In this document: piece by piece, positions 14,025-52,391 of the stretch
Layout of the letters: every line of letters begins with the position of its first letter
Position numbering within the stretch: position 1 is the first letter of the stretch
Source: Bradyrhizobium diazoefficiens
GTDB taxonomy: Bacteria; Pseudomonadota; Alphaproteobacteria; Rhizobiales; Xanthobacteraceae
DNA length: 64,000 nt
NCBI RefSeq assembly: GCF_016612535.1
Contig: NZ_JAENXS010000004.1
Location: forward strand, 62,001 to 126,000
Reading direction: 5' to 3'
Notes under the pieces: generated by a model
Database searches by the model: none
What the model was told of the DNA's origin: nothing
What the model saw: only the letters and a program-made list of their open reading frames with translations
Translations under genes and position numbers: made by a program

Positions 14025-15470
14025 TCAGATTGCGCAGACGGCCGGCTTGCGGCCGATCCATGGCTCGACTTCCTCCGCTTGGGCGGCAAGCCGCAATAGG
14101 GTCGCCTCGTCACCGTGGCGACCGACGATCTGGATACCGATCGGCGTATCGCCATCGCCCAGGGAAAGCGGAAGCGACATGGCCGGCAGGCCGGAAATGT
14201 TGTGCGAGAACATGTACGCCGCGTCGGACCAGCGATCTAGGTAGCGCTCACGGTTTCCATCGGTCATCGACCAATAGCCGACAGGGCGCGGCGGCTGGGT
14301 CAGCGTCGGGCTGACGAAGACATCGAAGGCCGCAAGTTCGGCAGCGATGGACTGCCCCGCCTTACGAACCGCACCGATGCTCGCCGAATATTCTGCCGCC
14401 GAAAGGGTTTTGGCATATTCGAGCATTGACCAGTTGAAGGGCTCCAGGTCTTCCTCCCGCGGCGGATGCCCGACGAATTTCGCGTGTTGCGTGAACTCGG
14501 TAAAGGTCTCGATCGCGATGATATCGTTATAAGGCCACCAAGCCGCCTCGATATCAGTCTTGACGTCGTATTCCTCGACCGTATGCCCCAGGCTCTCGAA
14601 TAGCTTCACGGCGTTCTCGACGGCGGCCTTGACCGCGGGCGCGAAGGGCTCGCCCCAGGGCGCACGTAGGGTATAGCCGATATTCAGCTTGCGCGGGCGA
14701 TCGGAAAGTCCGGCAAGCCAACTCTTTTCCGGTCGCGGCGCGTGATATGGGTCGCCCGGAAGATTTCCAGAAACGGCGTCCAGATAAGCCGCAGTGTCAC
14801 GTACGGTGCGGGTATTGCAGAGGAAATAAATGCTGCCGAACCACATGTCGGCTTCGTGAGGACCATAGCTCATTCGTCCACGCGAGGGCTTCAGCCCGAC
14901 AACACCGCAGCACGACGCCGGCACGCGTATGGAACCGCCACCGTCGGAGGCGTCTGCGATCGGCACGATCCGTGCGGCGACAGCCGCCGCCGAGCCGCCG
15001 CTCGATCCGCCTGGGGTGATGTCCGGATTCCACGGATTGACCGTCGGGCCGTAGAGACGCGGCTCCGAGGTGATGCACCAGCCATATTCCGGCGTGTTGC
15101 TGCGCCCCACCGGGACCAAGCCGGAAGCCTTCATTTTCCGAACGATTTCCGAATCTACCGGGCAGACGAAATCCTTCAGGTAAGGCGTGCCGAAGGTCAG
15201 GGCAGTGTCCTTCCACATCGTGCCCAAGTTCTTCAAAAGATAGGGCACGCCGGCGAAGAGACCGTTGTTCGGAACCGCACTCAGGGAGCGCGCGAGGTCG
15301 AAGGTCTCAATGATCACCGCGTTCAGCTTCGGATTGAGGTCTTCGATGATATGAATGGCGGTCTCTATGATCTCAGACGCCTTCACCTGCTTGCTGCGTA
15401 CGAGCTCACCAATGCCGAGCGCATCGGACTCCGCATACAGTTTCACGAGATCCTGGGTTACGTCTGTCAT
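14025..15470 (-). CDS. Amidase-signature enzyme (last gene of BMC operon)
   Basis: A 481-residue amidase-signature hydrolase. The Ser-cisSer-Lys triad is present: Lys in YLLKNLG (about residue 80), the first Ser in TPGGSSGGSAAA and the nucleophile in DGGGSIRVPASCCG. The family hydrolyses linear amides and the substrate cannot be read from the sequence. It follows the deleted second kinase and overlaps its remnant by 4 bases, on the same strand as the BMC genes. Its presence in a likely amino-alcohol operon suggests release of an amino alcohol or amine from an amide, which is inference. Confidence 0.88.
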   Translation of the reverse strand: MTDVTQDLVKLYAESDALGIGELVRSKQVKASEIIETAIHIIEDLNPKLNAVIIETFDLARSLSAVPNNGLFAGVPYLLKNLGTMWKDTALTFGTPYLKDFVCPVDSEIVRKMKASGLVPVGRSNTPEYGWCITSEPRLYGPTVNPWNPDITPGGSSGGSAAAVAARIVPIADASDGGGSIRVPASCCGVVGLKPSRGRMSYGPHEADMWFGSIYFLCNTRTVRDTAAYLDAVSGNLPGDPYHAPRPEKSWLAGLSDRPRKLNIGYTLRAPWGEPFAPAVKAAVENAVKLFESLGHTVEEYDVKTDIEAAWWPYNDIIAIETFTEFTQHAKFVGHPPREEDLEPFNWSMLEYAKTLSAAEYSASIGAVRKAGQSIAAELAAFDVFVSPTLTQPPRPVGYWSMTDGNRERYLDRWSDAAYMFSHNISGLPAMSLPLSLGDGDTPIGIQIVGRHGDEATLLRLAAQAEEVEPWIGRKPAVCAI

Positions 15471-15684
15471 ATCGCCCTCTGGAACACGCCGATTTCGTAC
15501 GCGCGCCCGTTGTTCGACGCGAATTCAAAACCGATGATCTTCATGTCCACGATCTGGTTCTGGTCGGACACCTTGGCCGTGAAGTTGCCCGGCATCTGCT
15601 CGATGTGCTCATTGATCATCGCGAACACGACCTTGGTGACGCTTGCAAGCATGAACCGCCCGTAGAGGTCGCGGCCTCGGACAT
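15467..15684 (-). pseudogene. Internally deleted APH-fold kinase (second kinase of operon)
   Basis: The fragment begins MSEAAT exactly like the intact kinase at 55.3-56.2 kb, with the same GATGACGAG upstream. It then jumps to sequence matching that gene's middle (out of frame, ATCGAACACATC-like region), then to MPGNFTAKVSDQNQIVDMKI and SNNGRAYEIGVF, then stops. The large N-terminal part, the segment with the catalytic HND motif and the C-terminal third are all missing. It cannot be active. Confidence 0.8.
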
Positions 15685-15701
15685 CTCGTCATCCTTTCTC
15701 G

Positions 15702-51029: not shown

Positions 51030-51223
51030 ACGGATCGCCCAGCTTCCACGAGGACCAGATTCGCCGTGCCGGCTTTGCTCTCGGCATCGATGAAGCGCAC
51101 CGCGATCGGATCGCCTTCTCGATCGACGTCAAGCAGAATACCCCTCACCGATCGAGTTACACCGCCCGGCACGCGCTGCACGACGCGGCCGCTCACCTGG
51201 CCATTTGTCTCCCGCTCGGGCTA
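51030..51223 (-). pseudogene. Remnant of propionyl-CoA carboxylase alpha subunit
   Basis: The minus strand reads NGQVSGRVVQRVPGG, then GILLDVDREGDPIAVRFIDA and, after a frameshift near 51045, SSWKLGDPSF. This lines up with the middle of pccA in this window (ISGQVGGRIVQRE, ILLEVAREGEAIGVRFVGAD, QSPWKPGDPVW), and bases agree closely with 33.55-33.74 kb. About 190 bp survive. The rest of 50.6-51.3 kb has open frames but nothing recognised. Confidence 0.7.
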
Positions 51224-51341
51224 AGGTCGGCGGCGCGGAAAAAGGCGGATCGAGGCGCAGCACAGTTGGCGATCTATAGCTCGGTAAGGGAGCCATTCCT
51301 CGTCTCATGAATTGAGAGGGCTCGGCAGCGGGTGAAGCCGA

Positions 51342-52391
51342 TCACCGGCAGGCCTCATGCCCGATCAGGCTCCAGTCGAGGACAATTTTTCCTGAGCGCC
51401 CGCTCTGCATTGTGTCGAAGCCGAGCTGGAAGTCTCGAGCCGGTAAGCGGTGCGTAATAACCGTTCGCACATCGAGGCCGGTCTGCACCATGCCTAGCAT
51501 CTTGTGCCAGGTTTCGAACATCTCTCGGCCATAGATGCCCTTCACCGTGAGCATCTTGAAAACGAGCTTGGTCCAATCAACTACAAACGGCTTCGAGGGA
51601 ATACCAAGCATTGCGATCTTCCCGCCTACTACGAGATGCTCAACCAGATCGTTGAAGGCCGCGGACGCACCGCTCATTTCCAGACCAACGTCGAAACCCT
51701 CCTTGATACCCAACCGCTCCTTAACAGACGCCAGATCTTCCGTTGAAACATCAACGGGCACGACGTCCGTTGTTTTGGCCGCCAGTTCTAGCCGCTCCGG
51801 ATTTACGTCAGTGATGACGATATGACGAGCACCGACATGTCTCGCCACAGCAGCGCTCATAATGCCAATTGGCCCTGCCCCGGTGATCAGAACGTCCTCG
51901 CCCACGAGGTTGAAGGACAGCGCTGTATGGACTGCGTTGCCAAGCGCATCCAGAATAGCACCTAGTTCGTCGTCAATATCATCGGGCAACGGCACGACAT
52001 TAAAAGCGGGAATTCTCACGTATTCAGCAAATGCGCCCTGGATGTTGACGCCGAGCCCTTGTGGTTGCGAGACAAGATGAAAGCGTCCGCTGCGAGCGGC
52101 GCGACCATGCATTGTGATTACATGCCCCTCCCCCGAGACACGCTGGCCACATACAAGGCCTTGAACAGCAGCGCCGAGATCAACTATTTCGCCCGCGAAC
52201 TCATGGCCCACCACCATCGGCACGGGCACTGCTTTACGAGCCCACTCGTCCCAATTGAAAATATGGATATCGGTACCGCAGATCCCGGTCTTCTTGACTC
52301 TTATCAAGACGTCATTCGATCCGATCGTGGGCACGGGTTCTTCGCGTAGCCATAATCCAGGCTCGGACTTGGCCTTGACGAGCGCCTTCAT
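51342..52391 (-). CDS. tdh: L-threonine 3-dehydrogenase lacking the structural-zinc cysteines
   Basis: A 349-residue zinc-dependent dehydrogenase oxidising L-threonine to 2-amino-3-oxobutyrate, which yields aminoacetone. The start MKALVKAKSEPGLWL has AAGGAG upstream. Catalytic-zinc motifs are intact: GICGTDIHIFNWDEW and VVGHEFAGEIV; AFAEYVRIPAFN, GAGPIGIMSAAVARHVGA and IKGIYGREMFETW-like segments match Tdh. The structural-zinc loop, normally CxxCxxCx7C after GEGH, reads GEGHVITMHGRAARSGRFHL with no cysteine. Frame is otherwise undamaged. Confidence 0.9.
   Translation of the reverse strand: MKALVKAKSEPGLWLREEPVPTIGSNDVLIRVKKTGICGTDIHIFNWDEWARKAVPVPMVVGHEFAGEIVDLGAAVQGLVCGQRVSGEGHVITMHGRAARSGRFHLVSQPQGLGVNIQGAFAEYVRIPAFNVVPLPDDIDDELGAILDALGNAVHTALSFNLVGEDVLITGAGPIGIMSAAVARHVGARHIVITDVNPERLELAAKTTDVVPVDVSTEDLASVKERLGIKEGFDVGLEMSGASAAFNDLVEHLVVGGKIAMLGIPSKPFVVDWTKLVFKMLTVKGIYGREMFETWHKMLGMVQTGLDVRTVITHRLPARDFQLGFDTMQSGRSGKIVLDWSLIGHEACR

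What the first reader, a model, noticed from the sequence alone, without database searches (positions are those of the whole stretch)
14025..52391. A threonine/aminoacetone-to-succinyl-CoA module with its own microcompartment, cofactor supply and regulators
Within 38 kb the window carries tdh (threonine to aminoacetone), an SDR suited to making 1-amino-2-propanol, APH-fold kinase(s), a class III PLP enzyme of the phospho-lyase type, a BMC aldehyde dehydrogenase, a shell set, PCC, methylmalonyl-CoA mutase, a bio-panD operon and a PccR-like regulator. Each step feeds the next and the product of the shell is the substrate of PCC. RMM/aminoacetone-type BMCs are known in Actinobacteria; such a complete linkage to the methylmalonyl pathway on a rhizobial island is, to my knowledge, not described. 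The pathway assignment is inference from families and co-location; ethanolamine is an alternative substrate.
Basis: partly seen in the sequence, partly recalled or inferred. Interest (0 to 1): 0.85.

Follow-up and report, generated by a model that had tools for sequence, protein, structure and literature searches.

The report
Rhizobial microcompartment linked to propionyl-CoA enzymes
A Bradyrhizobium-type genome carries a roughly 41-kb block that joins genes for a protein-shelled organelle, predicted to break down a small amino alcohol, to the enzymes that would feed its likely product into central metabolism; the block recurs in a second genome, and the organelle's usual first enzymes have been swapped for other ones.

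Summary
Window 15.5-56.8 kb holds an RMM/AAUM-type microcompartment core, ABC importers, an amidase, two choline-kinase-like kinases, an SDR, an orphan threonine dehydrogenase, PCC, methylmalonyl-CoA mutase, a bio-panD operon and an ScfR/PccR-type regulator. Among 265 genus genomes (own included) one other, probably B. arachidis, has it, collinear except for one ABC cluster; 29 of 29 compared ORFs have dN/dS below 0.42. In B. yuanmingense and Bradyrhizobium sp. 160 the AldDH and an mcmB apparently share a contig; island-type mcmB splits off with aLRT/UFBoot 98/100, but island mcmA and pccB show no such separation.

Corrections: none of 25 other alphaproteobacterial neighbourhoods has mcm, pccB, bioB, pccR or tdh; bio-panD is a common Bradyrhizobium operon; the SDR is 34% identical to the mycobacterial RMM one; the RMM kinase family is not found in the genome; the 14-kb amidase lies outside the shared block; bioA is frameshifted.

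Best reading: an RMM variant making propionyl-CoA from an amino-alcohol phosphate, feeding island PCC/MCM. Substrate and chemistry are inferred.

The parts
25566..26942 (-). plp: class III PLP protein, predicted amino-alcohol-phosphate phospho-lyase (homologue lengths suggest a start near 26846)
   Evidence: PF00202 249 bits; 58-63% in best tblastn match to actinobacterial RMM loci; 66-67% homologues on two rhizobial plasmids beside an alkaline-phosphatase-family gene
23997..25547 (-). aldh: CoA-acylating-type aldehyde dehydrogenase with a C-terminal helix that looks like an encapsulation peptide (LLRQLILQELREL)
   Evidence: TIGR02518 377 bits, below its cut-off 620; sequence; same or nearly same tail in B. 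yuanmingense and sp. 160
23389..24000 (-). BMC-T shell protein 1
   Evidence: NF053796 199 bits, PF00936 37 bits
22922..23389 (-). p155: RMM-associated protein of unknown function with an amphipathic N-terminus
   Evidence: no Pfam or NCBIfam hit; 54-64% in L003-L009
22671..22925 (-). BMC-P (EutN/CcmL) vertex protein
   Evidence: PF03319 71 bits
22376..22711 (-). BMC-H shell hexamer protein (true start probably downstream of the ORF start)
   Evidence: PF00936 92.5 bits
21706..22350 (-). BMC-T shell protein 2
   Evidence: best solved relative M. smegmatis-type MSM0271 (5suh, 284 bits), then RMM shell protein MSM0275
18065..21632 (-). ribose-type ABC importer: substrate-binding protein, ATPase, permease
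16655..18058 (-). ami2: amidase-signature amidase
   Evidence: PF01425 241.8 bits; same place in L003 and L004
15702..16643 (-). aph1: kinase-fold protein
   Evidence: PF01636 32.4 bits
15471..15701 (-). relic of a second aph2 copy
   Evidence: tblastn with aph2, 6e-22
26982..27400 (+). relic of the deoR regulator, divergent from plp
   Evidence: tblastn with L003/L004 deoR; sequence
27483..28277 (+). ptp: tyrosine-phosphatase-family protein
   Evidence: PF13350 173 bits; also beside aph2 in L003
28941..31163 (-). mcmA: methylmalonyl-CoA mutase large subunit
   Evidence: NF006944 1295 bits
31180..33144 (-). mcmB: methylmalonyl-CoA mutase small subunit, island-type
   Evidence: TIGR00642 412 bits, below cut-off 617; tree
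33163..35178 (-). pccA: biotin carboxylase/carrier subunit
   Evidence: start set from the sequence
35184..36716 (-). pccB: carboxyltransferase subunit
   Evidence: PF01039 641 bits; second copy elsewhere in the genome, 97%
36827..41356 (-). bioB-panD-bioF-bioD-bioA operon; bioA frameshifted
41608..43035 (+). ScfR-family (PccR/RamB-like) regulator
   Evidence: PF09856 212 bits; RamB model 452.5 against a cut-off of 700
43864..44730 (-). deoR: intact DeoR-family regulator
   Evidence: a deoR sits beside plp in L003-L006, L008 and L009
44914..49722 (-). branched-chain-type ABC importer; absent from the second genome, present in L008
49844..50611 (-). sdr: short-chain dehydrogenase, 78% to the one in L008, 34% to a mycobacterial RMM SDR
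51031..51202 (-). pccA relic
   Evidence: 71% repeat of 33541-33720; a like repeat (76%) in the second genome
51342..52508 (-). tdh: L-threonine 3-dehydrogenase, only Tdh match in the genome at 1e-60
53845..55089 (+). group II PLP decarboxylase (histidine/serine decarboxylase family)
   Evidence: NF002748 461.5 bits; 7erv 309 bits, 8jik 273 bits
55287..56213 (-). aph2: choline/ethanolamine-kinase-family protein
   Evidence: 3dxq 68 bits; PF01633 and PF01636 precomputed for P0005
56200..56774 (.). relics of aph1 3' end and plp 5' end (- strand) and of deoR (+ strand) from a second copy of the operon
   Evidence: self-repeats and tblastn; the window deoR piece itself rests on the repeat with 27024-27192

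Best explanation
The island encodes a variant of the RMM (aminoacetone/1-amino-2-propanol) metabolosome. Shown: PLP enzyme, AldDH and shell set are RMM-type, a PCC/MCM cluster is physically linked, and the arrangement is conserved in a second genome. Inferred: threonine is oxidised by the orphan Tdh and decays to aminoacetone; the SDR reduces it to an amino alcohol (1-amino-2-propanol most likely), or the ABC importer and amidase deliver such an amino alcohol; the choline-kinase-like pair stands in for the usual RMM kinase and phosphorylates it; inside the shell the PLP enzyme eliminates phosphate and ammonia to give propanal, which AldDH turns into propionyl-CoA; the island's PCC and MCM, with an epimerase presumed to come from elsewhere in the genome, make succinyl-CoA. 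DeoR and the ScfR-type regulator probably control the two halves.
For: RMM core: best tblastn matches to actinobacterial loci 58-63% (PLP), 48-55% (AldDH), 62-71% (T1), in the same order; T2 best solved relative MSM0271. Linkage: second genome collinear 15668-56385; dN/dS 0.047-0.413 in 29 of 29 ORFs with a counterpart. Further lineages: B. yuanmingense aldh, aph2 and mcmB each report a single contig of 70,497 bases, sp. 160 aldh and mcmB one of 34,753; six island-type mcmB split from 36 other mcmB plus an outgroup at 98/100. After an apparent duplication aph2 and the plp-to-aph1 part each survive once, on opposite sides, with relics of the other. Orphan tdh without Kbl. Phospho-lyase rather than transaminase: homologues of the PLP enzyme sit beside a phosphotransferase (46% homologue) or an alkaline-phosphatase-family gene. 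A propionyl-CoA cluster fits a C3 aldehyde better than acetaldehyde.
Against: SDR and kinases are not orthologs of the RMM enzymes, so their substrates are unknown. Relatives of the kinase pair (29% and 42%) lie next to ethanolamine ammonia-lyase genes in Agrobacterium, which points to ethanolamine. PCC and MCM have close copies elsewhere in the genome (mcmA 95%, pccB 97%). Only mcmB looks island-specific: island mcmA is about as far from the chromosomal copy (dS 0.43 in G000, 0.35 in G120) as from the other island's (dS 0.47), and likewise pccB (0.26 against 0.30). Other RMM loci do without the cluster. No epimerase or B12 gene seen in the ORFs scanned. The tandem operator of R. sphaeroides PccR (motif recalled) was not found with up to 3 mismatches; TTTGCAAA occurs once, at 58286, 0.67 expected; a relaxed tandem pattern gave 6 matches with 3.5 expected, the best (one mismatch) just before pccR.
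Confidence: 0.58

Rival explanations
1. The shell handles ethanolamine: a kinase makes phosphoethanolamine, the PLP enzyme makes acetaldehyde, AldDH makes acetyl-CoA; the PCC/MCM cluster is a neighbour with another role.
For: aph2 is choline/ethanolamine-kinase-like; its Agrobacterium relative lies in a cluster with an aph1-like kinase, a phosphatase and eutBC; an ethanolamine-phosphate phospho-lyase is a distant relative of the PLP enzyme (6tor, 111 bits, below many aminotransferases).
Against: An island-type mcmB stays with the BMC in several Bradyrhizobium, which acetyl-CoA would not need; orphan tdh in the same block.
Confidence: 0.25
2. Linkage by mobile-element history only: RMM operon and PCC/bio cluster travel on one island without a shared pathway.
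For: bio-panD and PCC/MCM clusters occur separately on rhizobial plasmids; 25 other alphaproteobacterial neighbourhoods lack the link; IS30 transposase and TraA/TraB lie beside the island; island mcmA and pccB are as close to genome copies as to the other island's.
Against: Island-type mcmB is a separate group, on BMC-bearing contigs in the four lineages where context is known or inferred; compared ORFs under purifying selection; reciprocal loss after duplication.
Confidence: 0.15
3. The class III enzyme is a true aminotransferase giving lactaldehyde or methylglyoxal, as earlier papers proposed for RMM (may overlap with the rival above).
For: Proposed by Axen 2014 and Ravcheev 2019 (passages read); its best solved relatives are aminotransferases.
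Against: Kinase or phosphatase-family genes recur beside its homologues; a kinase lies in most RMM loci fetched; PCC/MCM would not follow from lactyl-CoA.
Confidence: 0.12

Closest known systems
RMM1 / AAUM microcompartment of Mycobacterium and Rhodococcus (Axen 2014, PMC4207490, and Ravcheev 2019, PMC6620236: passages read; Mallette and Kimber 2018, two papers: seen only in reference lists)
   Same: Order plp-aldh-T1-...-P-H-T2; plp, aldh and shell 48-75% identical in best tblastn matches; no phosphotransacylase or iron-type alcohol dehydrogenase among the ORFs scanned
   Different: Usual dehydrogenase (34%) and kinase (not found) replaced; ABC importers and amidase where the papers describe an amino-acid permease, DeoR where they describe GntR; PCC/MCM, bio, ScfR and tdh linked
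   Same: Same core; the window, G120 and L003-L009 form one clade, support 1.000
   Different: L005, L006 and L009 keep the usual kinase; L004 has both kinase types; L003 and L008 share aph1/aph2 with the window; none has mcm, pccB or tdh in what was fetched
Rhizobial propionyl-CoA (pcc-mcm) clusters with an ScfR regulator, e.g. Bosea sp. 685 plasmid
   Same: pccB, pccA, mcmB, mcmA and an ScfR regulator together
   Different: No microcompartment gene annotated in the stretch shown; BioY transporter instead of the bio operon
Bradyrhizobium bioB-panD-bioFDA operon
   Same: Same gene set and order on two plasmids viewed
   Different: There beside a GntR regulator and with no PCC in the stretch shown; here beside the ScfR regulator and upstream of pccB on the same strand

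Membership tests
RMM/AAUM microcompartment | BMC-H, BMC-P and two BMC-T shell proteins of RMM type | tested here: met
RMM/AAUM microcompartment | class III PLP enzyme next to an acylating-type AldDH at the head of the shell genes | tested here: met
RMM/AAUM microcompartment | ortholog of the aminopropanol dehydrogenase (SDR) | tested here: not met
   window SDR 34% to the SDR of a mycobacterial RMM locus, against 60% for L005; that the mycobacterial SDR is the aminopropanol dehydrogenase is taken from its place in the locus, and no such dehydrogenase stood out among the 60 best solved relatives shown of 106
RMM/AAUM microcompartment | ortholog of the RMM kinase (6ef6 family; its identity with (S)-1-amino-2-propanol kinase is recalled) | tested here: not met
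   no match in G000, G120 or G677 at 1e-5, matches in the other 11 of 14 genomes, two of them only weak; L005 query is related to the 6ef6-like mycobacterial kinase
RMM/AAUM microcompartment | induction by and growth on 1-amino-2-propanol | not testable with these tools
   needs culture work
Propionyl-CoA to succinyl-CoA (PCC/MCM) pathway | PccA, PccB, McmA, McmB present with open frames | tested here: met
   mcmB and pccB score below the curated cut-offs of their closest NCBIfam models
Propionyl-CoA to succinyl-CoA (PCC/MCM) pathway | methylmalonyl-CoA epimerase and B12 supply in the island | tested here: inconclusive
   none among the ORFs scanned; small ORFs not all scanned, rest of genome not searched for them
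Tdh-only threonine to aminoacetone route | Tdh present without partner Kbl | tested here: met
   G120 also has a separate kbl next to its second tdh
PccR regulation | tandem TTTGCAAA operator (recalled) | tested here: not met
   relaxed pattern not clearly above chance (6 against 3.5 expected), best match before pccR

The most novel reading that the evidence does not exclude
A new RMM subtype in which the entry route was rebuilt. An amide-bound amino alcohol is imported by the ribose-type ABC system, trapped by phosphorylation by the choline-kinase-like pair, and cut by the amidase, so that amino-alcohol phosphate forms directly without the usual dehydrogenase and kinase. The phospho-lyase and AldDH in the shell turn it into propionyl-CoA, which is consumed by island PCC/MCM whose small mutase subunit has stayed with the organelle across several Bradyrhizobium, with an orphan Tdh adding threonine as a second source.
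Probability: 0.2. Interest if true: 0.78.

Novelty: new variant of a known kind. Interest (0 to 1): 0.62.

Why it matters
The fate of the acyl-CoA made by RMM organelles is unsettled: the two papers whose passages I read propose pyruvyl-CoA or lactyl-CoA. The two 2018 Mallette and Kimber papers could not be read and may already propose a propionyl-CoA route, so that route is not claimed as new. What is added is genetic evidence: a conserved physical link to PCC/MCM with an island-type mcmB. The swap of dehydrogenase and kinase around a little-changed core shows which steps of this organelle are exchangeable. I saw no report of such a locus in Bradyrhizobium among the papers listed (15 of 30 listed, titles and abstracts only).

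Tried and rejected
PccR operator search: no exact tandem site, relaxed sites near chance. Plasmid collection: one record, Rhodococcus jostii, with an AldDH match at 1e-80. The 14-kb amidase as part of the module: rejected, outside the collinear block. ORF 26976-27872 as a gene: rejected, no family hit and it overlaps ptp on the other strand. Co-occurrence of MCM with RMM as evidence: rejected, 18 of 19 genomes have an mcmA match anyway. A 40%-identical mutase lies about 31 kb from the AldDH on one contig in G048; taken as a different mutase, not followed up. The decarboxylase at 53.8 kb as a threonine decarboxylase: not excluded, but histidine decarboxylase scores higher. An island-specific mcmA or pccB lineage: not supported. 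No structure was predicted. The genus search scored only the five best first-look candidates in each genome listed. Literature: the ten searches listed no paper whose title or abstract describes a microcompartment with PCC/MCM or an RMM locus in Bradyrhizobium; the two papers of one search were not read. I saw two outlines and passages of six papers; subscription papers are mostly missing from the library.
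Full report
WHAT IS THERE. The window is G000:C4:62001-126000 of an 8.0-Mb genome. I call the genus Bradyrhizobium by inference: the bio region hits only Bradyrhizobium plasmids (14 of 14 records), and the collinear genome G120 has the contig length (9,429,272 bases) reported for an island-type mcmB named B. arachidis (P0246; the cluster holding its chromosomal mcmB, P0275, carries the name B. 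manausense). On the minus strand lies plp-aldh-T1-p155-P-H-T2 (26.9-21.7 kb), then a ribose-type ABC importer, an amidase and a kinase-fold gene. Upstream, past a phosphatase-family gene, lie mcmA, mcmB, pccA, pccB and the bio-panD operon, all on one strand, then an ScfR-type regulator on the other. Further up are deoR, a branched-chain-type ABC cluster, an SDR, tdh, a group II decarboxylase on the other strand and a second, choline-kinase-like kinase.

IS IT ONE UNIT. Of 265 genus genomes searched, own included, 10 have an AldDH match at 1e-60 but only two are of this type: the window's own and G120 (94%); the other eight are 32-38% identical. G120 is collinear from 15668 to 56385 apart from the missing branched-chain ABC cluster and some short unmatched gaps. 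Of 30 ORFs compared, 29 had a counterpart, none with internal stops, dN/dS 0.047-0.413 (bioA was counted as two ORFs; starts of aph1, ami2, pccA and aph2 were trimmed by hand). A Rhodobacteraceae contig (L008) shows the end of ami2, then aph1-aph2-sdr-livK-G-F-H-M-deoR-plp-aldh-shell in one row, which explains why aph2, sdr and the ABC cluster, scattered in the window, belong to the BMC.

DUPLICATION RELICS. Next to aph1 is a relic of aph2 (15471-15701); next to the intact aph2 are relics of aph1, plp and deoR (56200-56774); before plp is a relic of deoR (26982-27400), while an intact deoR is at 43.9 kb; a pccA relic lies between sdr and tdh. G120 has matching repeats for aph1, plp/deoR and pccA, and a 19-residue aph2 match after aph1. 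The simplest reading, an inference, is a duplication of the operon around the cassette followed by reciprocal loss; intact aph2 now lies about 39 kb from aph1.

MORE LINEAGES. In a protein database without context, B. yuanmingense aldh (90%), aph2 (93%) and mcmB (75%) each report one contig of 70,497 bases, and Bradyrhizobium sp. 160 aldh (89%) and mcmB (79%) one of 34,753. Equal contig length under one name is indirect evidence of one contig. In a tree of 43 mcmB (6 island-type, 36 others of which 34 were drawn at random and 2 are the chromosomal copies of G000 and G120, and a Bosea outgroup) the unrooted split of the six is 98/100. A FastTree of 123 sequences put the six together with the outgroup at 0.979. 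The outgroup branch is very long and lands inside the other group in the smaller tree, so only the unrooted split is used. For P0248 and CCBAU 21360 the BMC context is unknown.

RESULTS AGAINST. None of 25 other alphaproteobacterial neighbourhoods (up to about 20 kb each side, several much shorter; matches over 60 bits), none of L003-L009 and L036, and none of the 49 other loci of L010-L059 (up to 10 kb flanks, several cut) shows pccB, mcm, tdh, bioB or pccR. A pccA match at 26% in G041 and a bioA match at 29% in G836 were taken as other members of those families. The genome has another mcmA (95%), mcmB (74%) and pccB (97%). Island mcmA is no closer to the other island's mcmA (dS 0.47) than to its own chromosomal copy (0.43; 0.35 in G120), and pccB behaves alike (0.30 against 0.26), so only mcmB supports an island-specific lineage. 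Bio-panD is a general Bradyrhizobium operon.

ENTRY ENZYMES REPLACED. A mycobacterial RMM-locus kinase (L054; 550.7 bits to 6ef6) has relatives among the ORFs of 41 of 49 actinobacterial loci, 21 of the 25 alphaproteobacterial neighbourhoods and 4 (L004, L005, L006, L009) of L003-L009 and L036, but not in the window, G120, L003 or L008 (loci are often cut by contig ends). A whole-genome search with the L005 kinase found a match in 11 of 14 genomes and none in G000, G120 and G677 (host of L008) at 1e-5; the matches in G672 (31%) and G676 (32%) are weak. The SDR of L005 is 60% identical to the mycobacterial one, that of the window 34%. In the core tree the window, G120 and L003-L009 are one clade (1.000), with both kinase types inside it and L004 carrying both. 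The PLP enzyme and shell thus stayed while kinase and dehydrogenase changed.

HOW IT PROBABLY WORKS. Tdh without Kbl fits aminoacetone formation. Homologues of the PLP enzyme sit next to phosphatase-family or phosphotransferase genes, which fits a phospho-lyase. Propanal from 1-amino-2-propanol phosphate, and propionyl-CoA by AldDH, would make sense of a linked PCC/MCM; this chain is inference from families and linkage. Agrobacterium relatives of aph1 and aph2 lie with a hydrolase, a phosphatase and eutBC, which leaves ethanolamine and an amide precursor open.

VERDICT. A new variant of the RMM kind, not a canonical member because two of its enzymes failed the ortholog test, with a link to propionyl-CoA metabolism seen so far only in Bradyrhizobium.

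Noticed in passing
window 36827-38091: bioA is split into two overlapping ORFs in different frames while G120 has one open frame; sequencing error or a real loss could not be told apart.
   Followed up: partly
window 10-6223: Hydrogenase maturation genes (HypF, HypD, AIRS-domain, CobW/HypB-domain) and a NicO-family transporter next to the island.
   Followed up: no
window 60383-63964: TraB-type protein and Ti-type relaxase TraA: the island lies beside conjugation genes.
   Followed up: no
window 12598-13686: IS30-family transposase about 2 kb from the end of the collinear block.
   Followed up: no
L065-L071 (G172, G171, G116, G102, G109, G151, G140): A different BMC type in seven other genus genomes: AldDH 37-38% with BMC-H 60-74% and BMC-T 42-43% matches nearby.
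   Followed up: no
L233: Agrobacterium plasmid cluster of DeoR regulator, Zn-dependent hydrolase, two kinases, phosphatase and eutBC, perhaps an amide-to-ethanolamine route without a shell.
   Followed up: partly
L234, L235: Two nodule rhizobia carry the PLP enzyme (66-67%) with DeoR, a peptide-type ABC importer and an alkaline-phosphatase-family protein, with no BMC gene annotated in the stretches shown.
   Followed up: partly
window 22922-23389: p155, a conserved RMM-associated protein without any family hit, with an amphipathic N-terminus.
   Followed up: no
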